Origin: Peteryoungia rhizophila
GTDB lineage: Bacteria; Pseudomonadota; Alphaproteobacteria; Rhizobiales; Rhizobiaceae
Direction of reading: 5' to 3'
Length of the DNA: 64,000 nt
Assembly: GCF_004912145.1 (NCBI RefSeq)
Contig: NZ_STGT01000001.1
Span: 62,001-126,000 of the forward strand
The notes beneath the pieces were generated by a model that was not told the DNA's origin, ran no database searches, and saw only the letters and a list, made by a program, of their open reading frames with translations. Shown here piece after piece: positions 11,749 to 63,489 of this stretch (within the stretch, counting starts at the first letter, position 1; each line of letters opens with the position of its first letter). The position numbers were made by a program, and so were the translations under genes.

Positions 11749-12710
11749 GCGATCAGTCCGTATTCGGAGGCATTGGTGACGGCGCGGTGGAAGCGCAGCT
11801 TCTTCAGATATTCGAGCGGGTCCTTCTTGACCACCAAGGCGCCTGCCGGCGTCGTCAGCCAGTCATAGAGGCGGGTGAGGAAGAAGCGGAGTGCAGAGCC
11901 GCGGCAGAGGATCGGCAGTGCTTCGATCTCGGCGGCCGAGAGCGGGCGCACCGACTGGTAGCCCTCGATCATCGCCTTGCCTTTGGTGATGTTGTAGGCG
12001 CCGTCCTTTTCGAAACACCAGGAGTTCAGGCAGATCGAGAGATCGTAGACCAGGAGATCGTTGCAGGCGAAGTAGAAGTCGATCAGGCCGGAGAGCTGAT
12101 CACCGAGGAAGAAGACGTTGTCCGGGAAGAGGTCGGCATGGATGACGCCTGCGGGCAGATCCTTCGGCCAGTGGATAGCGAGGACATCGAGTTCCGCGCC
12201 GATCTCGGCCTCAAGCCCCTCCTCCACTTCGTCGGCCCGGCCCTCGGACTTGGCCCAGAGGATTTGCCAGCCTTCGAGGGAAAGCGCGTTCGGCCGCGTG
12301 AGCTCGAAACCCTCGCCGGCGATGTGCATCTTTGCCAGCGCCGCGCCCACTTCGCGGCAATGCTGGGCCTCGGGCTTTCTCAGCCACATGCCTTCGAGGA
12401 AGGAAATCAGCGCCGCCGGACGGCCGGAAAGTTCGCCGAGCAGTTCTCCATCCTGGCGCGGCAGGGGCAGCGGACAATTGAGCCCGCGCTCCGACAGGTG
12501 ATGCATCAGGCCGAGGAAGAAAGGCAGGTCGGATTTCTCGACGCGCTTTTCATAGAGCGTCAGGATCAGCGGGGACTTGGACGTATGGAGCAGGAAGTTG
12601 GAATTCTCGACGCCTTCGGCGATGCCCTTGTAGGAGAGCAGTTCTCCAGCGTCATACTGCGCGAGAAAGGCCTTGAGGTCGATTTCGTTGATGTCGGTAT
12701 AGACTGCCAC
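11745..12710 (-). CDS. thrB: Homoserine kinase (aminoglycoside-phosphotransferase fold)
   Basis: Phosphorylates homoserine to O-phosphohomoserine, the substrate of ThrC. It belongs to the choline-kinase/APH-type ThrB found in alphaproteobacteria and pseudomonads, not the GHMP type. It has 321 residues and the Brenner-type catalytic motif [13 protein letters not shown] followed by the metal-binding [11 protein letters not shown]. The start is a GTG at 12710 (MAVYTDI in the protein). The gene overlaps rnhA and is about 1 kb from ispH, with the PAS-GGDEF-EAL gene between on the opposite strand. Confidence 0.95.
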
Positions 12711-52646: not shown

Positions 52647-53036
52647 TCACCGGGATGGCTCGACGGCACCGCCATCCTGCCGGCATGCGAAGAGAACAGC
52701 CTCCCTGCCCGGCGCATCGCCAAGTGTCTGGCAGCCGCCGGCGTGACACAATGTCCAGCCGCTGGGTGTCGCGCCGGATGAAGCGAGCCGCAATTCGGAA
52801 ACGGGCGCGAGCGCTGGTTTCCAACGCCACCAGCCATCGTCGAGCACCGCCCCCTCGCCCGGCTCCATGCCGGCACCGGATCCCTTGACGCTCGCTTGAC
52901 GCAGTTCCAGCCCCTCTGACGTCACCGCCCATTCCTCGCGCCACTCGACCTTCTCGACCGAATGAACCCATGACAGGGAGAATGTTGTCGCCGGAATCGT
53001 CAGCACCGTCGCGGCGATGGCGATGCAGAGGCTCAT
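52647..53036 (-). CDS. DUF1850 protein associated with TRAP transporter
   Basis: A 129-residue exported protein with an N-terminal signal (MSLCIAIAATVLTIPATTFS) and the DUF1850 pattern: FSLSWVHSVEKVEWREEW, with the SVEK motif. DUF1850 genes are nearly always next to TAXI-type TRAP genes, as here: its ATG overlaps the TRAP permease stop (ATGA). The role is unknown; assistance of the transporter is likely. Confidence 0.85.
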   Translation of the reverse strand: MSLCIAIAATVLTIPATTFSLSWVHSVEKVEWREEWAVTSEGLELRQASVKGSGAGMEPGEGAVLDDGWWRWKPALAPVSELRLASSGATPSGWTLCHAGGCQTLGDAPGREAVLFACRQDGGAVEPSR

Positions 53037-55150
53037 GGCGTCTCTGTCTTGGGTGGTGTCGTCGCGATCGGCTCGGTAGCCTTACCGGGAAATTTCCAGA
53101 CCAGCAGGGCAAAGAGCAGCACGAGTGCTCCGCCGATCTCGTCGGTGATCGGCAATGCGGCCACCAGGAAGAAGGCGGCAGCGGCGGCCACCAGGCGATG
53201 CAGCAGCGGCAGCGGTCGGTTGAGGTAACCGATCACGGCGACACCCCAGAGACCGATCGAAAGGCTGGCCTTGATCACGATATAGACGACAGCCAGCGGA
53301 TAGCCGATCGCTGCCGCAAGGGGCCCTCCGTCCTGCAGCATCAGGGCCGGCGCATAGACGGCCATGAAGGGAATGACGAAGCCAGCGGCCGCCACCTTCA
53401 CCGCCTCGAATGAGATGCGCAGTCCGGATTCCTTCGCGATCGGGGCGGCCGCGAAGCAGGCGAGCGCCACCGGCGGCGTCAGGTCGGCCAGAATGCCGAA
53501 ATAGAAGACGAACATGTGGCTGACGATCAGGGGCACGCCGAGTTCGAGCAGTGCGGGGCCGGCGATCGAGGAGGTGATGATGTAATTCGGGATGGTCGGA
53601 ATGCCCATGCCGAGCAGGATGCAGGTGAGCATGGTCAGGATCAGCGACAGGAAGAGACTGTGCTGGCCAACGGCGACGACGAACTGGCCGAAGGTGTTGG
53701 CGGCACCCGTCAGTGTCATGGTGCCGACGATGATGCCGACCACGGCACAGGCGATGCCCACCGGCAGTGCCGTCTTTGCGCCATCCGCCAGGCTGTCGAC
53801 GCTGAGTTTCAAGGCTGCGCGGCCGCCCTTGACCATGAAATTCCAAGCGATCAGCACGAGGATCGCGATCAGCACGGCGCGGAAGCCATATTGGAAGAAG
53901 GACGCACCGGCGAGGCCGATGCCGATCCAGAAGATGGTGCGCACGGCGGTGTTGGACATGCCGATGGCGATCGAACTTCCGAGAATGAGCAGCATGGTGA
54001 GGGCGAGGCCGGCGGTGCCAGCGAATAGCGGCGTGTAGCCGGAGAAAAGGAGCCAGACGAGCGCGGCAAGCGGCAGCAGCAGATACCATTGCTGGCGGAT
54101 GGCGGCGAGCGGTGACGGCAAATCCTTGGGATCCAGCCCGCTCAGGCCACGCTTTCCGGCCTCCAGATGCACCATCCAGAACACGGAGGCGAAATAGAGA
54201 ATGGCCGGGATCAGCGCTGCCTTGACGATCTCGGCATATTCGACACCCAGCGTCTCGGCCATGATGAAGGCAACGGCGCCCATGACGGGCGGCATGATCT
54301 GGCCGCCCATCGAGGCGGTCGCCTCGACGCCGCCGGCGAAGGCGGGGCGATAGCCGAAGCGCTTCATCAGGGGGATGGTGAACTGGCCTGTTGTCACGAC
54401 ATTGGCAACGCCGGATCCGGAGATCGTGCCCATCAGGCCCGACGAGATGACCGAGACCTTAGCTGGGCCGCCGCGCTTGTGGCCGACCAGGCCGAGGGAG
54501 ACGTCGGTGAAGAGCTTGATCATGCCTGCCCGCTCCAGGAAGGAGCCGAACAGGATGAAGAGGAAGATGTAGGAAGACGATACATAGGTCGGGACGCCGT
54601 AGATGCCTTCCGTGCCATAGGCCATGTGGTCGATGACCTGGGAATAGTCGTAGCCGCGGTGATTGAGCGGCGACGGCAGGTATTCGCCAAAGAAACAATA
54701 GGCGAGAAACAGGCCCGAAATGATCGGGAGGGCCGGCCCCATGATGACCCAGGCGCCGATGAAGACAGTGGCGATCGCGACGACGCCGAAATAGAGGTCC
54801 AGTGGGACCAGATCGCCGGCGCGCAGGATCAGCGGTTCGTATTCAACGAATTGATAGACCGCCACCGCCACGCCAGCTGTCGCAAGTGCCCAGGCGCCGG
54901 CCGTGTAAAGGGCACCCTTGCGGAGATTGGCGGCAACCAGCGGAAAACCAAGCAACAGCAGGAAAGCGACATGGGTGGAGCGGACGAGCTGGCTCGGCAG
55001 GTCGATCAGATGCGCCGCGGTCGCGATCTGGAACAGCGAGAAAGCGACGGCGATGCCATAGAGCAGCTTTCCCTCGGCGGTTGCCGGAAAGTGCTGCTCA
55101 TGGGTGTTCGGTTCATGCGACAGGGTCTGGTCCGCGGTGGTGGCGCTCAT
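53033..55150 (-). CDS. TRAP transporter fused permease (TAXI type)
   Basis: A 705-residue inner-membrane protein fusing the small (DctQ-like, four helices) and large (DctM-like, twelve helices) TRAP subunits, the layout used with TAXI binding proteins. The large part has GTISGSGVANVVTTGQFTIP and a conserved GGVEATASMGGQIMPPVMGA. Transport is driven by an ion gradient. The ATG at 55150 is chosen; the reading further upstream has no support. It overlaps DUF1850 and follows the binding-protein gene. Confidence 0.93.
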   Translation of the reverse strand: MSATTADQTLSHEPNTHEQHFPATAEGKLLYGIAVAFSLFQIATAAHLIDLPSQLVRSTHVAFLLLLGFPLVAANLRKGALYTAGAWALATAGVAVAVYQFVEYEPLILRAGDLVPLDLYFGVVAIATVFIGAWVIMGPALPIISGLFLAYCFFGEYLPSPLNHRGYDYSQVIDHMAYGTEGIYGVPTYVSSSYIFLFILFGSFLERAGMIKLFTDVSLGLVGHKRGGPAKVSVISSGLMGTISGSGVANVVTTGQFTIPLMKRFGYRPAFAGGVEATASMGGQIMPPVMGAVAFIMAETLGVEYAEIVKAALIPAILYFASVFWMVHLEAGKRGLSGLDPKDLPSPLAAIRQQWYLLLPLAALVWLLFSGYTPLFAGTAGLALTMLLILGSSIAIGMSNTAVRTIFWIGIGLAGASFFQYGFRAVLIAILVLIAWNFMVKGGRAALKLSVDSLADGAKTALPVGIACAVVGIIVGTMTLTGAANTFGQFVVAVGQHSLFLSLILTMLTCILLGMGIPTIPNYIITSSIAGPALLELGVPLIVSHMFVFYFGILADLTPPVALACFAAAPIAKESGLRISFEAVKVAAAGFVIPFMAVYAPALMLQDGGPLAAAIGYPLAVVYIVIKASLSIGLWGVAVIGYLNRPLPLLHRLVAAAAAFFLVAALPITDEIGGALVLLFALLVWKFPGKATEPIATTPPKTETP

Positions 55151-55243
55151 GGGTGTCCGTCCGAAGGATAAGCCTAGGGGCAAAAGACCGGGCAGCATGG
55201 CGGCCACCCGGTCCTTTCATGCAGCTTCAGAAGCTCTCAAGCC

Positions 55244-56200
55244 TCACAGCATGCCCTTTTCCTTGTAGTAGCGTTCTGCGCCCGGATGCAGGGGGATCGG
55301 CATGCCCTTGGTGGCATCTTCCAGCTTGATGTCCTTGGCGGCATTGTGAGCCGCCTGCATGTCGGCCAAGTTCTCGAACAGCTGCTTGGTCATCTCGTAG
55401 GCGAGATCGTCGGAGACGTCCGAATGGGTCACCAGGAAGTTGACGACGGCCACCGTCGGCACATCCTCCGTCTGGCCCTCATAGGTACCGGCTGGGATGG
55501 TCGCGGCGATGTAGGGCGCGCCGAGTGCCGTGGCGACTTCGGCCGGAACGGCGACCAGTGAGACCGGCAGCGAGGTGGACAGGTCCTTCAGCGACGCCAC
55601 GCCGAGGCCGGCGGACTGGAGGGTCGCGTCGAGCTGGCGGTTCTTGATCAGTTCGACAGACTCCGCAAAGGGCAGATACTCGGTCTTGCCGAGATCTTCA
55701 TAGCTCATGCTCGCGGCTTCGAGGATGGCGCGGGCATTGAGTTCCGTGCCCGACTTCGGTGCACCGACCGAAAGGCTCTTGCCCTTGAGGTCGGCAAGCG
55801 ATGTCACGCCGGAATCCTTTGTGGCGACGATCTGGATGAAGTTCGGATAGATGGCGGCGATGCCGCGCAGTTTGTCGAGCGGTGCCTTGAAGCCGGCATC
55901 GGCATCACCTTCCGCCGCGAGCTTGACGCTGTCGCCGAGCGAGAAGCCGATTTCGCCCTTGCCCTGCTGCAACAGATTGAGGTTTTCGACCGAGGCCTTG
56001 GTCGCCTGCACCTGGGTGCGGACATCCGGGATCTTGTCGCCGTAGATCTTCGACAGGGCGACGCCCAGCGGATAGTAGACGCCGGAGGTTCCTCCGGTCA
56101 GCACGTTGACGAACTGCTCGGCTCTGACCGATGCTGCGCCAAATGCGACAGATGCAGCCACGGCGCCAGCGAGCAAGGTGCTAAGTCTCGAAAAATGCAT
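55244..56200 (-). CDS. TAXI family TRAP transporter solute-binding protein
   Basis: A 318-residue periplasmic receptor. The signal peptide covers residues 1-27 (LLAGAVAASVAFGAASVRA). Mature features: VNVLTGGTSGVYYPLGVALS at the start, VQATKASVENLNLLQQGKGEIGFSLGD, and the hinge ADLKGKSLSVGAPKSGTELNA. TAXI receptors often bind dicarboxylates or amino acids such as glutamate. GGGAGG lies upstream of the ATG at 56200. It forms a complete TAXI-TRAP/DUF1850 system with the next two genes. Confidence 0.93.
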   Translation of the reverse strand: MHFSRLSTLLAGAVAASVAFGAASVRAEQFVNVLTGGTSGVYYPLGVALSKIYGDKIPDVRTQVQATKASVENLNLLQQGKGEIGFSLGDSVKLAAEGDADAGFKAPLDKLRGIAAIYPNFIQIVATKDSGVTSLADLKGKSLSVGAPKSGTELNARAILEAASMSYEDLGKTEYLPFAESVELIKNRQLDATLQSAGLGVASLKDLSTSLPVSLVAVPAEVATALGAPYIAATIPAGTYEGQTEDVPTVAVVNFLVTHSDVSDDLAYEMTKQLFENLADMQAAHNAAKDIKLEDATKGMPIPLHPGAERYYKEKGML

Positions 56201-56316
56201 GATTGTCCTCCCAAACAATATTCGCAATTGCGACATCATGGGGAGACGAAAGAGGGGCGTCAACCTCGTATTTGACGAAGTTCAGGGATATCCCGGCGCA
56301 TCCCGAACTCTGCTGC

Positions 56317-56787
56317 TCATTCCCGGACCGGAATATGCAGCCCCACCTTCACGTCGCGCAGCACCACATTGGTATGCATGCGCCGAATCTGCGGGTTCTC
56401 GGCCATCAGTTGCGCAGTGATGTCGTCGTAGTGCTCGACGTCACGGGCGGTGATGATGGCGACCAGATCGACCTGGCCGGTGACGTAATAGACCTGCTGC
56501 ACATGCTCCTGCCTGTCAGCCCAGGCGCGGAAACGAGCAAGTGCATCGTAATTGTCGCGCTCGATCTCCATGCCGGTGATGAAGGTCATCGGGAAGCTCG
56601 TCGCCTTGCGGTTCACCACGGCGATCTCGGCGGTAATGATGCCCTCGTCGCGCAGGCGGCGCAGCCGGCGCTGCACGGCAGAGGGCGAGAGCCCCACCTT
56701 GTCGGCGATCGCCTCGGCCTTCAGCTGGCAGTCGCGCTGCACCACTTCCAGAATGCTGCGGTCGAATTGATCGAGCTTGTCCGGCAT
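56317..56787 (-). CDS. Lrp/AsnC family transcriptional regulator
   Basis: A 156-residue regulator: an N-terminal helix-turn-helix (LKAEAIADKVGLSPSAVQRRL) and a RAM ligand domain (about 65-150, with VQQVYYVTGQVDLVAII). Proteins of this family sense amino acids and usually activate or repress an adjacent gene cluster. It is divergent from the PAAT/sulfur cluster, with 183 bases between, and so is the likely regulator of that cluster. GAGGAGG lies directly upstream of the ATG. It is also 116 bases from the TAXI gene, in the same orientation. Confidence 0.93.
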   Translation of the reverse strand: MPDKLDQFDRSILEVVQRDCQLKAEAIADKVGLSPSAVQRRLRRLRDEGIITAEIAVVNRKATSFPMTFITGMEIERDNYDALARFRAWADRQEHVQQVYYVTGQVDLVAIITARDVEHYDDITAQLMAENPQIRRMHTNVVLRDVKVGLHIPVRE

Positions 56788-56906
56788 GCGTTTTTCCTCC
56801 TCGCGCACCGCGTTTTGTCGCTGCATAGACGATCGGAAAACCGTTTGCCATCTTTCCGCAGCAATCAAGCGTTCTGCGCGGGATTTCCCCGCAAGAAACA
56901 GCAAAT

Positions 56907-56943
56907 GCGACCAAAATCCGCAGCTTTGCGCCCATATGGTCGC
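56907..56943. promoter_or_regulatory. Inverted repeat in the lrp / ABC divergent region
   Basis: Arms GCGACCA (56907-56913) and TGGTCGC (56937-56943) lie 23 bases apart, about three turns between arm centres. It is a candidate Lrp/AsnC operator; the right arm lies 27 bases upstream of the ATPase gene start. Confidence 0.4.
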
Positions 56944-56970
56944 GCAATTGCCAAATGACCTGGAATCAAG

Positions 56971-57765
56971 ATGACAGGAACCGCCCCGGCCGCGCTCGAC
57001 GTGCACGACATCGCCAAGAGTTTCGCCGGCGTCGAGGTTCTCAAGGGCATCTCCGCCACTGCCCGTCGTGGCGACGTGATCTCGATCATCGGCTCGTCCG
57101 GTTCCGGCAAGAGCACCTTCCTCCGCTGCATCAACCTTTTGGAAGCGCCCGATCGCGGCCGTATAATTATCGGTGGTGAAGAGCTGAAGCTGCGCGCCTC
57201 CCGCAAGGGCAGCCTTGAGGCCGCCGACCGCAAGCAACTCGAGCGGTTGCGCACCGGGCTTGGGATGGTGTTCCAGAGCTTCAATCTCTGGGCCCATCGC
57301 ACTGTGCTGGAAAACGTCATCGAAGCACCGGTGCATGTTCTGAAGATGCCGCGTCGGGAGGCGATCGAGAAAGCGGAAGCGCTGCTCGCCAAGGTCGGGC
57401 TCTACGACAAGCGCGATGCCTATCCGGCCTTTCTCTCCGGCGGCCAGCAGCAACGGGCGGCGATTGCTCGCGCACTCTGTGTCGATCCGGCCGTCATGCT
57501 GTTCGACGAGCCGACGTCGGCGCTCGATCCGGAGCTTGTCGGCGAAGTGCTGAAGGTCATCCGGGATCTGGCCGATGAGGGCCGCACCATGCTTCTCGTC
57601 ACGCATGAGATGAGCTTTGCCCGCGAGGTCTCCAGCCATGTGATGTTCCTAGACAAGGGGCGCGTCGAGGAAGAGGGACCGCCGGACCAGGTCTTCGGCG
57701 ACCCGAAAAGCGCCCGTTGCCGTGAATTCACCCGCAGCCTCGGGGGGCGCGGGGCCACGGCCTGA
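56971..57765 (+). CDS. Polar amino-acid ABC transporter ATPase
   Basis: A 264-residue ATP-binding subunit of the HisP/OccP (PAAT) class. Walker A GSSGSGKST, Q-loop VFQSFNLWAHRTVLENV, signature LSGGQQQR, Walker B VMLFDEPTSALDPE and a histidine in LVTHEMSFAREV. It drives amino-acid import with the binding protein and permeases that follow. First gene of the operon that is divergent from the Lrp gene. Confidence 0.94.
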   Translation: MTGTAPAALDVHDIAKSFAGVEVLKGISATARRGDVISIIGSSGSGKSTFLRCINLLEAPDRGRIIIGGEELKLRASRKGSLEAADRKQLERLRTGLGMVFQSFNLWAHRTVLENVIEAPVHVLKMPRREAIEKAEALLAKVGLYDKRDAYPAFLSGGQQQRAAIARALCVDPAVMLFDEPTSALDPELVGEVLKVIRDLADEGRTMLLVTHEMSFAREVSSHVMFLDKGRVEEEGPPDQVFGDPKSARCREFTRSLGGRGATA

Positions 57766-57805
57766 ACACCCATTTCAACCTTCAATCCAATTGGGGAAAA
57801 CGACG

Positions 57806-58576
57806 ATGAAACTGATCTCCCTTCTTCTCGCCGGCGCCGCCTTTGCCGCGACCGCCGTCACCGCCCAGGCCGAAGTCCGCTTCGGCATCATGAACGAGGC
57901 CTATCCGCCCTTCTTCGCCAAGGATGCGTCGGGCACCTGGAACGGTTGGGAAATCGACCTGATGAACGCCGTCTGCGCAGAGATGAAGGAGATCTGCTCG
58001 GTCGTCGACGTCTCCTGGGACGGCCTGATCCCGGCGCTGCAGACGAAGAAGTTCGACGTCATCTGGTCGTCGATGTCGATCACCGAGGAGCGGTTGAAGA
58101 CCATCGATTTCACCGACAAATACTACAACACGCCGAGCAAGCTGATCGGACCGAAGGATGCGACGCCGGGTGCGACGCCTGAGGCCGTCGACGGCAAGAC
58201 GATCGGCATCCAGGTCTCGACCGTGCAGTCGGCCTATTATGCGAAGCACTTCGCCGAGAAGGCCGAGGAGCAGACCTACGCCACCCTGGACGAAGCCTTC
58301 CAGGATCTTTCCGCTGGCCGCATCGACTATGTCTTCGGCGATGCCATCCCACTTGCCGATTTCCTCAAGACCGATTTCGGCAAGGATTGCTGCGCCGACA
58401 TGGGCGACGTGGCGGCTGATCCGTCCGTTCTCGGCACCGGCATTGGCGGTGGCCTGCGCAAGGAAGACACCGAACTCAAGGCCAAGCTGAATGCGGCGAT
58501 CGCCGCCGTCCGCGCCTCTGGCAAGTATGACGAGATCACGAAGGCTTACTTCACCTTCGACGTCTACGGCCAGTAA
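57806..58576 (+). CDS. Amino-acid ABC transporter periplasmic binding protein
   Basis: A 256-residue family 3 solute-binding protein. The signal peptide covers residues 1-21 (LLAGAAFAATAVTAQA). Ligand-domain parts: VRFGIMNEAYPPFFAKDASG, NGWEIDLMNAVCAEM and IWSSMSITEERLKTIDFTDKYY. GGGGAAAA lies upstream of the ATG at 57806. Family 3 proteins bind amino acids or opine-like compounds; the aspartate, arginine and serine/threonine residues of an amino-acid site are in the expected places, but the ligand is not predictable. It lies 40 bases after the ATPase gene. Confidence 0.92.
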   Translation: MKLISLLLAGAAFAATAVTAQAEVRFGIMNEAYPPFFAKDASGTWNGWEIDLMNAVCAEMKEICSVVDVSWDGLIPALQTKKFDVIWSSMSITEERLKTIDFTDKYYNTPSKLIGPKDATPGATPEAVDGKTIGIQVSTVQSAYYAKHFAEKAEEQTYATLDEAFQDLSAGRIDYVFGDAIPLADFLKTDFGKDCCADMGDVAADPSVLGTGIGGGLRKEDTELKAKLNAAIAAVRASGKYDEITKAYFTFDVYGQ

Positions 58577-58597
58577 TCGGCAGGGATTGCGGACGAG

Positions 58598-59323
58598 ATG
58601 GCGACCGCTTCGATGACGGCATGGCAATTGCTGGCGCTTCAGCCTCCGGGCTGGGGCGGCGCGCTGTTGACCGGTGCTGCCACCACCGTCGCCATCTCGG
58701 CCTGCGCCTATTCGATCGGCCTCGTCATCGGGCTGTTCGGGGCGCTCGGCAAGCTTTCCAACAACCGGACCGTCGGACTGATCCTCAAGGGCTATACCTC
58801 TGTCATCCGGGCGGTGCCGGAACTCATCCTGATCGTCGGGCTCTATTATGCCGGGACCGATGGCCTCAACCGGCTGCTGATGGCCTTCGGTCTCCCGCCG
58901 GTCGAGGTCAATGGTTTCGTTGCTGCCGTCGCCGTGCTCGGCTTCGTGCAGGGCGCCTACATGACCGAGGTGCTGCGCGGCGCGATCCTGGCGATCCCGG
59001 CGGGGCAGATCGAGGCGGCGCGGGCCTTCGGCATGTCGCCGCTGCTGCGGTTTCGTCGAGTTACGCTGCCGGCATTTCTGCCGAACGCCCTTCCCGGCAT
59101 GGCCAATCTCTGGATGTCGGTCACCAAGGACAGCGCGCTGGTCGCTGTCGTCGGCTATCAGGAACTGGCGCTGACGACGCGTCTCGCGGGTGCCAATACC
59201 AAGGAATATTTCCTCTTCTTCCTGGCGGCAGCTGTCCTCTATCTCGTCATCACGCTTCTCTCCAACCTCGTCTTCCATGGCATCGAGCGCCGCGTGCGCC
59301 GGGGCCAGAAGCCGGCGCATTGA
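58598..59323 (+). CDS. Amino-acid ABC transporter permease (HisQ type)
   Basis: A 241-residue inner-membrane permease of the HisM/HisQ type. It has about five helices and the EAA coupling loop near IEAARAFGMSPLLRFRRVTL. It follows the binding protein by 21 bases. With the next gene it forms the membrane channel. Confidence 0.93.
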   Translation: MATASMTAWQLLALQPPGWGGALLTGAATTVAISACAYSIGLVIGLFGALGKLSNNRTVGLILKGYTSVIRAVPELILIVGLYYAGTDGLNRLLMAFGLPPVEVNGFVAAVAVLGFVQGAYMTEVLRGAILAIPAGQIEAARAFGMSPLLRFRRVTLPAFLPNALPGMANLWMSVTKDSALVAVVGYQELALTTRLAGANTKEYFLFFLAAAVLYLVITLLSNLVFHGIERRVRRGQKPAH

Positions 59324-59335
59324 GGGGGACGTGAG

Positions 59336-60025
59336 ATGAATTTCGAATGGATCGCGAAATACTGGCCACTTCTGATCGAAGGCGCCTTCCAGACCGTTTC
59401 GCTGCTGGTGATCTCGGTCGGCTTCGGCTTCGTGCTGGCGGTGGGGCTCGCCTTTGCACGGGTGAGCGGCGGGCCTGTCATCCGCAATCTCGCGCTTGGC
59501 TATTCTACCGTGTTTCGCGGCACGCCGCTGCTGATCCAGCTCTGGCTCCTCTACTATGGCGTGGGCTCGCTGCTACCGATGGTACCAGGACTCCGCCAGA
59601 GCTTCCTATGGCCGATCCTGCGCGAAGGCTTCTTCTTTGCCGCCCTCTCCTTCACGCTCAACTTCGCCGCCTATCAGTCGGAAGTGCTTCGGGGGGCGCT
59701 GCTCTCCGTGCCGAAAGGTGAGCTGGAAGCGGGGCGCTCGCTCGGCATGAGCCCGTTGATGCTGATCAGACGCATCTGGCTGCCAAGGGCGATCCGCACG
59801 GCGCTGCCGACGATTGCCGGCGAGATCGTGCTGCAGCTGAAAGCCACGCCGCTCGCCTTCACCGTCACCGTGATGGATCTCTATGCCGTCGCCTTCAAGG
59901 TCCGCCAGGACACGCTTCTCGTCTACGAGCCACTGCTCGTCGTCACCCTCTTTTATGTCGCGCTCACGGCCCTCATCACCCGCGCCTTCGGGGTAGTCGA
60001 GGCGCAAGTGCCGATCCGCCGCTGA
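59336..60025 (+). CDS. Amino-acid ABC transporter permease (HisM type)
   Basis: A 229-residue second permease with five hydrophobic segments. The coupling loop is ELEAGRSLGMSPLMLIRRIW. Thus the ABC system is complete: one ATPase, one binding protein and two permeases. It lies 12 bases after the first permease and 22 bases before the PLP-enzyme gene, so transporter and enzymes are one operon. Confidence 0.93.
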   Translation: MNFEWIAKYWPLLIEGAFQTVSLLVISVGFGFVLAVGLAFARVSGGPVIRNLALGYSTVFRGTPLLIQLWLLYYGVGSLLPMVPGLRQSFLWPILREGFFFAALSFTLNFAAYQSEVLRGALLSVPKGELEAGRSLGMSPLMLIRRIWLPRAIRTALPTIAGEIVLQLKATPLAFTVTVMDLYAVAFKVRQDTLLVYEPLLVVTLFYVALTALITRAFGVVEAQVPIRR

Positions 60026-60047
60026 GGCGGCTTGAAAGTGAAATGCC

Positions 60048-61280
60048 ATGACGAAAGCCTTCGTGACCCATCCCCTGCCCGCATCTTCCGGTCCTGAAAC
60101 CCGGGCGCTCGATGCCGGCCTGGTGATCGATCCGGCGACCGGGGCGATTGCGCCCAATGTCTCGATGTCGGTCAACAATGTGCTGATGCCGGGCGATGGT
60201 GCCTTCTCCGCCGATGGCGTCGCTGATCTCGCCGATCTTCCCTATCTCTATGCGCGGTGGACGAACCCCACCGTGCGGCAGCTGGAACAGCGGCTGGCGG
60301 GCCTCGAAGGCGCCGAGGACGCGCTGGCGACGGCCACCGGCATGGCGGCGATTGCCGGTACGCTGTTCACCTTTCTCAAGGCCGGCGACCATCTCGTCGT
60401 CTCGGATGTCTGTTATGCGGGCGCCGTCGAACTCACCCAGCGGGTGCTGCCCGATTTCGGCATCGAGGTGACACCGGTCAACATGGCGCGTCTCGATCTG
60501 GTTGAAGCCGCCATGCGGCAGAATACCCGGCTCGTGCATTGCGAGAGCCCGGTCAATCCGATCCTGCGCATGGTTGATCTCGAAGCGCTTGCGAGGATCG
60601 CCCATAGGCATGGGGCGCTGATCTCGGTCGATTCCACCTTTGCCACCCCGGTTGCTACGCGCCCGCTGTCGCTCGGCGTCGATCTCGTCATCCATTCGCT
60701 GACCAAATTCATCAATGGTCATGGCGACGTGCTGGGCGGGGCCGTGATCGGGCGAAAGGAGCTGATCGCCCGTATCAGGGGTCGCGCCGGCGTCTATCTC
60801 GGGGCGTCGCTTTCGGCCCAGTCGGCCTGGCTGATCATGCGCGGCATCGACACGCTTTATCCGCGCCTGCGCATGGCTTCAGACAGCGCCCTTGCCGTCG
60901 CGACCTTCCTGGAAGGTCATCCGGAGGTGGAGCGTGTGATCTATCCGGGTCTCGCCTCCCACCCGCAGCATGATCTCGCGAAACGCCAGATGGATGTCTT
61001 CGGGGGCATGATCGCGTTTCGCACGCGCAACCCGAAAGCCGCCGCAGAGCGGCTAGCGACAAGGCTGCGCGTTGCCCACTATGCCTTTTCGCTCGGTCAC
61101 CAGCGCAGCCTCGTGGTGCTGCTCGATACCGAGGAGATGATGACCTCGACCTTCCGCCTCACGGGCGAGGCCCTCACCGATTACCGCGCCTATGCCAGCG
61201 ACGGGCTCTTCCGCCTGTCGATCGGCCTCGAGACCACAGGCGACATCATCGCCGATCTCGACCAGGCGCTTACCCCATGA
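60048..61280 (+). CDS. Cys/Met metabolism PLP-dependent enzyme (cystathionine/methionine gamma-lyase type)
   Basis: A 410-residue enzyme of the Cys/Met metabolism family (fold type I). The PLP lysine is K220 in HSLTKFINGHGDVLGG. Other marks are the Tyr/Arg pair LYARWTNPTVRQLEQRLAGLEG near the N-terminus and STFATPVATRPL. Methionine gamma-lyase, cystathionine gamma-lyase and synthase all look alike here. Its partner genes (homocysteine methyltransferase, amino-acid uptake, Lrp) favour sulfur amino-acid breakdown or transsulfuration. Position between permease and methyltransferase genes; ATG 60048. Confidence 0.9.
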   Translation: MTKAFVTHPLPASSGPETRALDAGLVIDPATGAIAPNVSMSVNNVLMPGDGAFSADGVADLADLPYLYARWTNPTVRQLEQRLAGLEGAEDALATATGMAAIAGTLFTFLKAGDHLVVSDVCYAGAVELTQRVLPDFGIEVTPVNMARLDLVEAAMRQNTRLVHCESPVNPILRMVDLEALARIAHRHGALISVDSTFATPVATRPLSLGVDLVIHSLTKFINGHGDVLGGAVIGRKELIARIRGRAGVYLGASLSAQSAWLIMRGIDTLYPRLRMASDSALAVATFLEGHPEVERVIYPGLASHPQHDLAKRQMDVFGGMIAFRTRNPKAAAERLATRLRVAHYAFSLGHQRSLVVLLDTEEMMTSTFRLTGEALTDYRAYASDGLFRLSIGLETTGDIIADLDQALTP

Positions 61281-61303
61281 CCACATCCGACGGAGACATA
61301 TCC

Positions 61304-62215
61304 ATGGCAGACACAATGATCCTCGACGGCGGCATGAGCCGCGAACTCTTGCGGCTCGGTGCAGAGCTGAAGCAGCCGCAATGGTCGGCGCTGGCGCTGA
61401 TGAACAGCCCCGAGATCGTGCGCCAGGTGCATGCCGAGTTCATCGCGGCCGGTGCCGATGTCGTCACCACCAACTCCTATGCGCTGGTGCCCTTCCATAT
61501 CGGCGAGGAGCGGTTCCAAACGGACGGTCCTGATCTCATTGAGCTCTCCGGCAAGCTGGCGCGGGAAGCTGCGGATGCGGCCGGCCGCAAGGTGGTGGTC
61601 GCGGGATCGTTGCCGCCAATCTTCGGCTCCTATGAGCCCCAGAATTTCGATCCGTCGACCGTACAGGACTATCTCAAGGTTCTGGTCGAGAACCTCGCGC
61701 CCCATGTGGACGTCTGGCTCGGCGAAACGCTCAGCCTGATTGCCGAAGGCGAAGCCGTGCGCAAGGCGATCCAGGCGCAGCCGAAGCCTTTCTGGATCTC
61801 GTTCACGTTGGCCGACGACGCAGGCCAGCTGGCCGGCGGCGAACCGAAGCTGCGCTCCGGTGAGACGGTCAAAGCCGCCGCCGAATGGGCCGCGGGCTCG
61901 GGTGCTTCTGCGCTGCTGTTCAATTGCGCCAAGCCGGAGGTGATGAAAAAGGCGGTGGAGACGGCAGCATCCGTGTTCGCGGAAAAAGGCTCATCGCTCA
62001 AGATTGGCGTCTACGCCAATGCCTTCGAGACCGACACCGAAGACAAGGCGGCCAACGAGGGCCTGCACGATACCCGCGAGGACCTGACGGGCGACGTCTA
62101 TTCCCGCTTCGCCTGCCAATGGGCCGAGGCCGGTGCCACGATGATCGGCGGCTGTTGCGGCATCGGGGCGGAACATATCCACCGAGTGGCTGGCGCGCTG
62201 AGAGCGCGGGGCTGA
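61304..62215 (+). CDS. Homocysteine S-methyltransferase family protein
   Basis: A 303-residue Zn-dependent methyltransferase of the BHMT/MmuM family. Zinc ligands are the first cysteine in LLFNCAKPEVM and the pair in MIGGCCGIG; N-terminal ILDGGMSREL is the typical barrel start. It would transfer a methyl group from S-methylmethionine or another S-methyl donor to homocysteine. The ATG at 61304 (MADTMILDGG) has GGAG eight bases upstream; an ATG at 61277 overlapping the lyase stop is also possible and would make the genes coupled. Last gene of the operon. Confidence 0.9.
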   Translation: MADTMILDGGMSRELLRLGAELKQPQWSALALMNSPEIVRQVHAEFIAAGADVVTTNSYALVPFHIGEERFQTDGPDLIELSGKLAREAADAAGRKVVVAGSLPPIFGSYEPQNFDPSTVQDYLKVLVENLAPHVDVWLGETLSLIAEGEAVRKAIQAQPKPFWISFTLADDAGQLAGGEPKLRSGETVKAAAEWAAGSGASALLFNCAKPEVMKKAVETAASVFAEKGSSLKIGVYANAFETDTEDKAANEGLHDTREDLTGDVYSRFACQWAEAGATMIGGCCGIGAEHIHRVAGALRARG

Positions 62216-62253: not shown

Positions 62254-62377
62254 CGATTGTGTCATTCCTGTGATTTTTTCTTGCCGCCTGCCTTGAACTC
62301 CGGATGACAGGCCCCATCTGAGCGTTTGCGGACCGGGCCCCTCTGGCGATGGATATTATCCTCGTGATGTCGGACCG

Positions 62378-62395
62378 CATCGAGCACGCTCGATG
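62378..62395. promoter_or_regulatory. 18-bp palindrome upstream of terC
   Basis: CATCGAGC and GCTCGATG flank a two-base AC centre, about 80 bases before the terC start. It may be an operator or part of the leader RNA. The rest of the 260-base gap has no gene. Confidence 0.45.
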
Positions 62396-62475
62396 TCATG
62401 CCCGGACCGGATCTCTCTTCTGCGAGACCGTGCGCGCGTTGCATCGAGCCAGATCATGCAACAGAGGTCAGACAC

Positions 62476-63489
62476 TTGGAACTCCTGCTCATACTCTTTC
62501 TCGGCAAGCCACTCTGGATGTGGCTGCTATTCATCCTGTTGGTCGTTGCGCTTCTGGCCTTCGACCTCGGCGTTCTCAACAAGGACGACCATGAAATCGG
62601 CATCGCCGAAAGTCTCAAGCTTTCGGCGATGTATATCACCCTCGGGGTGCTCTTCTCCGGCTTCATCTACTGGCAGATGGACACCACGGCGACCGCCCAG
62701 TATCTCACGGCCTTCGTGGTCGAGAAAACGCTGGCGATGGACAATATCTTCGTCATTGCGCTGATCTTCAGCTTCTTCGCCATCCCGCGCGAATACCAGC
62801 ATCGGGTTCTCTTCTGGGGCATTCTCGGCGTAATCCTGCTGCGCGGCATCATGATCGGCCTCGGCGCCACGATCGTCGATCAGTATCATTGGGTGCTCTA
62901 TCTCTTCGCCGGCTTCCTGATCCTGACGGGCATCAAGATGCTGTTCGTCGCCGACAAGGAGCACAAGATCGAGGATAATGCCTTGATCCGCTTCCTGAAG
63001 CGTCGGTTGAACGTGACGGAAGAAACGCATGGTCACGACTTCTTTGTGAAGAAGCCGGATCCGGTAACGGGCAAGATCAGGCGCTTCGCAACGCCGCTCT
63101 TGCTGGCGCTGATCATGATCGAGATCGCCGACCTCGTCTTTGCGGTCGACTCGGTGCCGGCGGTGTTCACCATCACCACCGACCCCTATATCGTCTACAC
63201 CTCGAACATCTTCGCGATCCTCGGCCTGCGCGCACTCTACTTCGCGCTGGATGCCATCCTGCACCGCTTCGCCTACCTGAAGTATGCGCTGTCGGTCCTC
63301 TTGATCTTCATCGGCTCGAAGATCTTCATCGCCTATGGCATGGGCTGGGAGAAGTTCCCGCCGGAATGGTCGCTGGGGATCACCTTCCTCATCCTCGGCG
63401 TTGGCGTTGCCTATTCGCTATGGAAGACGGGCGGTGGCTCCGATGGCACCGCGACCAAGGTCGTGGAAGCCAGGAACCCGGCCGAATAA
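62476..63489 (+). CDS. TerC family integral membrane protein
   Basis: A 337-residue membrane protein of the TerC/Alx family, which includes manganese exporters and tellurite-resistance proteins. The family signature is seen in VVEKTLAMDNIFVIALIF and IMIEIADLVFAVDSVPAVFTI, where acidic residues in the membrane form the metal site. About nine helices; a cytoplasmic loop holds ETHGHDFFVKKPDPVTG. It probably exports manganese, as for Alx. The start is a TTG at 62476 with AGAGG eight bases upstream; longer readings are less likely. I do not see a yybP-ykoY manganese riboswitch motif in the leader. Confidence 0.9.
   Translation: MELLLILFLGKPLWMWLLFILLVVALLAFDLGVLNKDDHEIGIAESLKLSAMYITLGVLFSGFIYWQMDTTATAQYLTAFVVEKTLAMDNIFVIALIFSFFAIPREYQHRVLFWGILGVILLRGIMIGLGATIVDQYHWVLYLFAGFLILTGIKMLFVADKEHKIEDNALIRFLKRRLNVTEETHGHDFFVKKPDPVTGKIRRFATPLLLALIMIEIADLVFAVDSVPAVFTITTDPYIVYTSNIFAILGLRALYFALDAILHRFAYLKYALSVLLIFIGSKIFIAYGMGWEKFPPEWSLGITFLILGVGVAYSLWKTGGGSDGTATKVVEARNPAE

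What the first reader, a model, noticed from the sequence alone, without database searches (positions are those of the whole stretch)
56317..62215. Lrp-controlled uptake-and-processing cluster for a sulfur amino acid or S-methyl compound
A complete PAAT importer, a Cys/Met gamma-lyase-type enzyme and a homocysteine S-methyltransferase are in one tight operon (gaps 0-40 bases) facing an Lrp-type regulator. Together these could import S-methylmethionine or a similar plant-derived compound, use it to methylate homocysteine, and break down or rebuild the products. The combination is coherent and its specific substrate appears untested for this layout as far as I can tell.
Basis: partly seen in the sequence, partly recalled or inferred. 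Interest (0 to 1): 0.6.

Follow-up and report, generated by a model that had tools for sequence, protein, structure and literature searches.

The report
Rhizobial S-methylmethionine uptake and breakdown operon
A root-associated bacterium carries a gene set that probably imports a plant sulfur compound, S-methylmethionine, and uses it to make methionine; a third enzyme, a distant cousin of one that breaks down the legume toxin canavanine, may split the compound into dimethyl sulfide gas and homoserine, but none of this has been tested at the bench.

Summary
In detail: at 56317-62215 an Lrp-type regulator faces a tight six-gene operon: a complete cationic-amino-acid-type ABC importer, a Cys/Met-family PLP enzyme and a homocysteine S-methyltransferase (HMT). 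Survey work adds three things. (1) Importer plus HMT is the more conserved core in Rhizobiaceae; the PLP gene is optional. (2) The operon is a paralogue of the rhizobial canavanine-type operon: importer subunits are 62-71% identical, and some fuller relatives carry its homoserine dehydrogenase, aldehyde dehydrogenase, aspartate ammonia-lyase and homoserine-kinase-like genes. But the PLP enzyme is a separate clade (43% identical to the canavanine-type lyase), the tRNA editor CtdA and the SugE-type exporter are absent, and HMT is present. One genome (Ensifer sesbaniae) has both clusters. (3) The PLP enzyme keeps the catalytic residues of methionine gamma-lyase but not its specificity cysteine. 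Best reading: uptake of S-methylmethionine (SMM), methyl transfer to homocysteine, and gamma-cleavage of SMM to dimethyl sulfide plus homoserine. SMM with importer and HMT is likely (about 0.7); the cleavage step is a testable inference (about 0.5). Against it: a few clusters lack HMT, and many PLP relatives stand alone. Yeast has an analogous trio of genes. Substrate, product and regulation are untested.

The parts
56317..56787 (-). Lrp/AsnC-family regulator (156 aa), divergent from the operon
   Evidence: HTH_AsnC-type, AsnC_trans_reg; Lrp relative in 31 of 32 PLP+importer loci
56875..56893 (.). candidate operator 1, TGCG-N11-CGCA near-palindrome
   Evidence: similar but not identical in close relatives, judged by eye; function inferred
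56906..56922 (.). candidate operator 2, TGCG-N9-CGCA near-palindrome
   Evidence: judged by eye; function inferred
56971..57765 (+). ABC importer ATPase (HisP-like)
   Evidence: 71% identical to the ATPase of the canavanine-type cluster
57806..58576 (+). periplasmic binding protein, LAO/HisJ type
   Evidence: 62.5% identical to the canavanine-type cluster's protein, with fixed differences
58598..59323 (+). importer permease 1 (HisQ-like)
59336..60025 (+). importer permease 2 (HisM-like)
60048..61280 (+). PLP enzyme of the Cys/Met family, proposed SMM gamma-cleaving enzyme; own clade
61304..62215 (+). homocysteine S-methyltransferase (alternative upstream start 61277); cysteines C217, C293, C294 (numbered from the upstream start)

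Best explanation
The operon imports S-methylmethionine (SMM, a cationic sulfonium amino acid of plants) through a dedicated ABC importer. Inside, the HMT transfers a methyl group from SMM to homocysteine, giving two methionines. The PLP enzyme cleaves SMM at the gamma carbon, releasing dimethyl sulfide and leaving homoserine (or, less likely, 2-oxobutyrate plus ammonia); in some fuller relatives homoserine would be oxidised to aspartate semialdehyde and aspartate and deaminated to fumarate by genes of the same cluster. The Lrp-type regulator senses SMM, methionine or another product. Shown here: gene content, conservation, relationships, conserved residues. Inferred: substrate, products, regulation.
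For: HMT and importer stay together without PLP (22 neighbourhoods: importer in 16, PLP in 7). Of 32 loci with PLP and full importer: HMT 30, Lrp 31, homoserine and aldehyde dehydrogenase both 7, CtdA 0, SugE-type exporter 0. Five loci combine homoserine genes, importer, PLP and HMT (L137, L141, L154, L155, L158), so homoserine is the simplest product. A. larrymoorei plasmid: PLP, phosphotransferase, Lrp, HMT. Canavanine-type clusters share the backbone but have another PLP, CtdA, exporter and no HMT. Importers split into two clades with fixed binding-protein differences. PLP keeps Y68, R70, Y123, D195, K220, S348, R389 but has Gly125 where 6 of 6 MGL-type rows have Cys. HMT keeps three cysteines in 95 of 95 rows (some genomes counted more than once). 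In print: MGLs are reported to gamma-eliminate SMM to DMS; yeast has the SMM permease MMP1, SMM-metabolising MHT1 and the PLP enzyme HSU1 on one segment, HSU1 variants affecting DMS from SMM (PMC10729969, passages).
Against: No ligand, product or expression was tested. Many PLP relatives have neither importer nor HMT nearby: 8 of 43 at 68% identity or more (some on short contigs), 15 of 17 at 60-68%, 19 of 19 below; they share the active-site residues. HMT scores under the NCBIfam cut-off (129.7 against 215). The window's own cluster lacks the homoserine genes. HMT relatives also occur with other importers and an M20 hydrolase. In yeast, loss of HSU1 gave an advantage on SMM, and its direct action on SMM is called only possible.
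Confidence: 0.55

Rival explanations
1. It is a canavanine-utilisation operon: the importer takes up canavanine and the PLP enzyme is a canavanine gamma-lyase giving hydroxyguanidine and homoserine.
For: Importer 62-71% identical to that of the canavanine-type cluster; fuller relatives share homoserine dehydrogenase, aldehyde dehydrogenase, AspA, homoserine-kinase-like and Lrp2 genes; in the PLP tree the two groups lie together apart from MGL rows (97/83).
Against: PLP 42.6% identical and in a separate clade; own genome has no canavanine-type lyase at E<=1e-120 and no CtdA match at E<=0.001; CtdA and exporter in 0 of 32 such loci but 6 of 7 and 5 of 7 canavanine-type loci; HMT unexplained; G071 has both.
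Confidence: 0.1
2. A methionine or S-adenosylmethionine uptake and recycling operon: the PLP enzyme releases methanethiol from methionine (or methylthioadenosine from SAM) and HMT balances homocysteine and methionine.
For: Best NCBIfam hit is methionine gamma-lyase (348 bits) and best PDB relatives are MGLs; MmuM-type enzymes accept SAM too (recalled).
Against: Far below the MGL cut-off of 549.7; MGL Cys is Gly in 33 of 33 rows of the wider clade; binding protein is of cationic type; homoserine genes in fuller relatives do not fit 2-oxobutyrate as product.
Confidence: 0.15
3. Uptake of homoserine or an O-acyl or conjugated homoserine from root exudate, the PLP enzyme hydrolysing the gamma ester; HMT is only a neighbour.
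For: Homoserine genes in 7 of 32 loci; PLP family includes O-acylhomoserine enzymes; three clusters lack HMT.
Against: Cationic-type binding protein; HMT in 30 of 32 and in clusters without PLP.
Confidence: 0.1

Closest known systems
Canavanine-utilisation operon of Rhizobium leguminosarum and Pseudomonas canavaninivorans
   Same: Related importer (62-71% identical); in fuller relatives also homoserine dehydrogenase, aldehyde dehydrogenase, AspA and homoserine-kinase-like genes; gamma-cleavage by a Cys/Met-family PLP enzyme giving homoserine (for the window, inferred).
   Different: PLP of another clade (42.6% identical), no CtdA, no SugE-type exporter, HMT added. The rhizobial cluster used for comparison was recognised by CtdA next to a PLP lyase as PMC10018355 (passages) describes; it is not proven to be the published one, and the primary paper (Hauth 2022) was not held.
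E. coli mmuP-mmuM (S-methylmethionine uptake and salvage)
   Same: Uptake of SMM plus an SMM:homocysteine methyltransferase.
   Different: Single permease (recalled) instead of an ABC importer; no PLP enzyme or Lrp gene (recalled); HMT here only distantly related.
Yeast MMP1 - MHT1 - HSU1 segment
   Same: Same trio of roles: SMM permease, SMM-metabolising enzyme, Cys/Met-family PLP enzyme linked to DMS from SMM (PMC10729969, passages).
   Different: No ABC importer, no operon; direct action of HSU1 on SMM unproven there too.
Methionine gamma-lyase
   Same: Family and catalytic residues; reported to gamma-eliminate SMM to DMS (PMC10729969, passage).
   Different: Specificity cysteine is Gly125; W71, Y250, R353 differ; score below the family cut-off.

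Membership tests
Methionine gamma-lyase (TIGR01328) | score above curated cut-off of 549.7 bits | tested here: not met
   348.1 bits
Methionine gamma-lyase (TIGR01328) | specificity cysteine (C. freundii Cys115; role recalled) | tested here: not met
   Gly125 in the window and in 33 of 33 rows of the wider clade; Cys in 6 of 6 MGL-type rows (5 of these over the cut-off); Ala in 5 of 5 canavanine-type rows
Methionine gamma-lyase (TIGR01328) | catalytic Tyr, Lys, Asp, Arg of the family (roles recalled) | tested here: met
   Y123, K220, D195, R389 conserved in all groups
Canavanine-utilisation operon | gamma-lyase of the CtdA-linked type | tested here: not met
   42.6% identity, separate clade; none in own genome at E<=1e-120
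Canavanine-utilisation operon | CtdA (B3/4 tRNA editor) beside it | tested here: not met
   no hit in the window at E<=1e-5 nor in the own genome at E<=0.001; the same query finds relatives in other loci
Canavanine-utilisation operon | cationic-type importer of that operon | tested here: inconclusive
   62-71% identical subunits, but a separate clade
Canavanine-utilisation operon | activity on canavanine | not testable with these tools
   needs an assay
MmuM-type SMM:homocysteine S-methyltransferase | three zinc-binding cysteines (role recalled) | tested here: met
   C217, C293, C294 kept in 95 of 95 rows of at least 65% identity; aligned with chain 5dml, homocysteine S-methyltransferase
MmuM-type SMM:homocysteine S-methyltransferase | score above the NCBIfam cut-off (PRK09485, 215 bits; that this model is MmuM is recalled) | tested here: not met
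   129.7 bits, best of the five models matched
MmuM-type SMM:homocysteine S-methyltransferase | methyl transfer from SMM | not testable with these tools
   needs an assay
Polar amino acid (PAAT) ABC importer | ATPase, family-3 binding protein and two HisQ/HisM-type permeases in one operon | tested here: met
   both permeases pass the HEQRo_perm_3TM domain model

The most novel reading that the evidence does not exclude
A dedicated bacterial pathway in which a PLP enzyme splits imported S-methylmethionine into dimethyl sulfide and homoserine, evolved by retooling a canavanine-type operon (new lyase, HMT gained, tRNA editor and exporter lost): a gene candidate for SMM-to-DMS cleavage as a specific function, and a route from plant sulfur to DMS through root bacteria.
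Probability: 0.45. Interest if true: 0.7.

Novelty: new variant of a known kind. Interest (0 to 1): 0.55.

Why it matters
SMM is an important transport form of sulfur in many plants (recalled). If the reading is right, rhizobia can take it from roots, gain methionine from it, and turn the rest into homoserine and volatile DMS. It would offer genes for an activity described long ago in soil bacteria without a gene (recalled, not checked in print), and show how an operon for one unusual plant amino acid was adapted to another by swapping its lyase and accessory genes.

Tried and rejected
Canavanine as substrate: taken seriously because importer and PLP family fit; lowered after finding the CtdA-linked cluster, which differs in lyase, CtdA, exporter and HMT and coexists with the window type in G071. 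Methionine gamma-lyase: lowered on family score and residue 125. Riboswitch control: the one Rfam hit in the window at gathering threshold is terC RNA, beyond the operon. Neighbourhoods of stand-alone PLP relatives (Rhodobacterales; Der-linked Rhizobiaceae): no functional link seen. Operators: intergenic regions of more distant clusters align poorly, and the motif was picked by eye. Gene calls come from a simple script that misses or mislabels genes (for example in L033); the counts in the report use tblastn. The importer tally was too low because related query names competed for one place; one search replaces it. One search printed empty rows for L033-L072 through a naming slip; one search covers these. 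L192 was dropped for lack of a long PLP match (79 of 80 counted). Structure prediction and fold search were not run: the fold is not in doubt and would not settle the substrate. The primary canavanine paper (Hauth 2022) is not held. Paper searches on SMM with ABC transporter, Rhizobium or Sinorhizobium, mmuM, DMS, lyase, homoserine or methionine gamma-lyase listed nothing that by title or abstract start treats this operon; I saw passages only of PMC10018355, PMC12366255, PMC4239095, PMC9135737, PMC13412083 and PMC10729969, and most subscription papers are not in the library.
Full report
What is there. The window lies in a Rhizobiaceae genome (G000, 5.24 Mb). The nearest named relatives of the PLP protein (93-97%) are in Rhizobium species, Peteryoungia aggregata, Agrobacterium albertimagni and an Allorhizobium MAG. 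An Lrp/AsnC gene (56317-56787, minus) faces ATPase, binding protein, two permeases, PLP enzyme and HMT (56971-62215, plus), with gaps of 12 to 40 bases if HMT starts at 61304.

The importer. ATPase, binding protein and permeases score best with histidine or lysine-arginine-ornithine models, under those models' cut-offs; both permeases pass the general HEQRo_perm_3TM domain model. The best solved relatives of the binding protein are cationic-amino-acid, histidine and LAO binding proteins. A cationic amino acid is therefore the likely class of substrate; SMM, arginine and canavanine belong to it (recalled chemistry).

The HMT. Among five NCBIfam models matched the best is PRK09485, homocysteine S-methyltransferase (129.7 bits, cut-off 215); the best solved relative is 5dml, homocysteine S-methyltransferase (by recall the E. 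coli MmuM). Three cysteines aligned with it are kept in 95 of 95 rows of at least 65% identity, some genomes counted more than once, and in 15 of 15 rows of 50-65%. The genome has two further distant matches, 29% and 28% identical; that these are a betaine-type enzyme and MetH is a guess from recall.

Conservation. In a sample of 297 family genomes, 157 match HMT at E<=1e-10, 28 of them at 66% identity or more, the window's own included. I fetched larger neighbourhoods for 22 of the other 27: 16 of 22 hold the window-type importer (for L054 the ATPase lies just outside and is seen in L105) and 7 of 22 the PLP gene. Importer plus HMT is thus the core and PLP an addition. PLP matches at E<=1e-100 occur in 24 of 297 genomes.

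Named genomes. A scan of genome contigs with a 12-row PLP alignment found 197 confirmed places among those holding its peptide patterns and kept the best 80; 79 had a long match to the window PLP. Of 43 with at least 68% identity, 32 hold all four importer genes within 9 kb. Of these 32: HMT in 30, Lrp in 31, homoserine dehydrogenase with aldehyde dehydrogenase in 7, AspA in 4, homoserine-kinase-like protein in 7, DapA in 1, CtdA in 0, SugE-type exporter in 0. Of the other 11, three have HMT (L130 on a cut contig, L136, L182) and eight have neither, some on short or cut contigs. Of 17 loci at 60-68%, one has the importer (Tritonibacter, no HMT), one an HMT (Oryzibacter), 15 neither; of 19 below 60%, none has either. 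The species are related and do not count as independent events.

Fuller relatives. In Rhizobium phaseoli (annotated record) the order is Lrp, then homoserine dehydrogenase, aldehyde dehydrogenase, importer, PLP, aspartate ammonia-lyase, phosphotransferase, second Lrp; no HMT in the stretch. Five loci (L137, L141, L154, L155, L158) have homoserine genes and HMT, the HMT last; not all have AspA. On an A. larrymoorei Ti plasmid PLP, phosphotransferase, Lrp and HMT lie together beside another importer. In the R. phaseoli cluster the dehydrogenase passes the homoserine dehydrogenase cut-off and AspA a subfamily cut-off; the phosphotransferase matches only homoserine kinase models, under their cut-offs; the aldehyde dehydrogenase is not resolved by name. 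Homoserine to aspartate semialdehyde to aspartate to fumarate is the simplest reading, hence homoserine as product of the PLP step.

The canavanine-type operon. PMC10018355 (passages) reports that in P. canavaninivorans and R. leguminosarum a B3/4 tRNA editor (CtdA) lies directly before the canavanine degradation operon, whose key enzyme, canavanine gamma-lyase, gives hydroxyguanidine and homoserine. I searched 60 Rhizobium genomes with the B3_4 family and fetched 10 of the smaller hits. Two loci, L237 and L238, have the editor next to an importer, a Cys/Met PLP enzyme, a SugE-type exporter (122.7 bits, cut-off 126), homoserine dehydrogenase, aldehyde dehydrogenase, DapA and, in L237, AspA. 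The other eight showed no such cluster in 19 kb; one of them, L236, has a CtdA relative of 66% without it. A search with the L237 PLP found 5 more loci in 4 of 297 family genomes. Over these 7 loci CtdA is in 6, the exporter in 5 and HMT in 0 of the fetched stretches (L250 and L251 look incomplete). One of these genomes, G289, has an importer-HMT cluster elsewhere on the same contig (L037).

Comparison. Against L237 the window importer is 62.5-71% identical but the PLP only 42.6%. In the PLP tree (48 rows) the five canavanine-type rows (100/100) and the 33 rows with the window (99/95) are separate groups, lying together apart from MGL rows and own-genome paralogues (97/83); the root is for drawing only and the paralogues are long branches. 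In the importer tree (41 rows) the five canavanine-type importers form their own clade (100/100). Thirty binding-protein positions share no residue between 5 canavanine-type and 31 window-type rows (one is a gap at the end), among them 36-37 (FF against YT), 45 (W against A or S) and 140 (V or I against T); which of them touch the ligand was not determined. G071, the Ensifer sesbaniae genome by its contig length, holds both clusters, so they most likely serve different substrates. The window genome has no canavanine-type lyase at E<=1e-120 and no CtdA match.

The PLP active site. Core residues are kept. Position 125 is Gly in 33 of 33 rows of the wider clade, Cys in 6 of 6 MGL-type rows and Ala in 5 of 5 canavanine-type rows; W71, Y or H at 250 and R or K at 353 also set the clade apart. 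Stand-alone relatives share these residues, so context is lost while the enzyme stays.

Interpretation. Among cationic amino acids with a good leaving group on the gamma carbon, SMM explains importer, HMT and a homoserine-yielding PLP step at once; dimethyl sulfide would leave as gas, which may be why no exporter is needed (inference). MGLs are reported to turn SMM into DMS, and in yeast the SMM permease MMP1, the SMM-metabolising enzyme MHT1 and the PLP enzyme HSU1 share a segment, HSU1 being linked to DMS from SMM by trait mapping; the authors call the direct reaction possible, and loss of HSU1 was an advantage on SMM (PMC10729969 passages). Against the reading: HMT is missing from three fuller clusters and, in G029, from the genome at E<=1e-10; many PLP relatives have no such context; HMT is under its family cut-off; no experiment exists.

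Verdict. A real, conserved operon, a paralogue of a canavanine-type operon, most likely for SMM. The new element is the combination and the proposed step from SMM to DMS plus homoserine, which can be tested directly.

Noticed in passing
window 62325-62382 (+): terC RNA (RF03067, 59.4 bits) just before an ORF at 62398-63489 that looks like a TerC-type membrane protein (by reading, not searched).
   Followed up: no
window 53033-56263 (-): ORFs that look like a fused TRAP transporter membrane protein and a TAXI-type binding protein, next to the Lrp gene (by reading, not searched).
   Followed up: no
L182 / L051 (Aureimonas altamirensis): PLP, HMT and Lrp lie with a dipeptide-type ABC importer and an M20 amidohydrolase instead of the cationic importer; HMTs of 55-58% identity in L055-L060 lie with M20 relatives and mostly the same importer, L061 and L063 with M20 and another PAAT importer. 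This may mean a conjugated form of the substrate.
   Followed up: partly
L070, L071, L072: More distant HMTs (36-41%) lie near two DAO-GcvT proteins (Pfam run on L070 only, the others by similarity), so this HMT branch may serve N-methyl donors.
   Followed up: partly
L101, L102 (= L152), L103 (= L157), L146, L148: Close relatives (71-75%) of the PLP enzyme stand alone next to a der GTPase gene (named in L101, others by similarity), without importer or HMT.
   Followed up: partly
60 Rhizobium genomes; L239, L242: 32 of 60 genomes carry a further B3/4 match besides PheT in a smaller frame (about 80-92 bits); in the seven of these fetched none adjoins the genes searched for, and two are 36% identical to CtdA.
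   Followed up: partly
window 11913-12626 (-): A frame 28% identical to the homoserine-kinase-like phosphotransferase of the fuller clusters.
   Followed up: no
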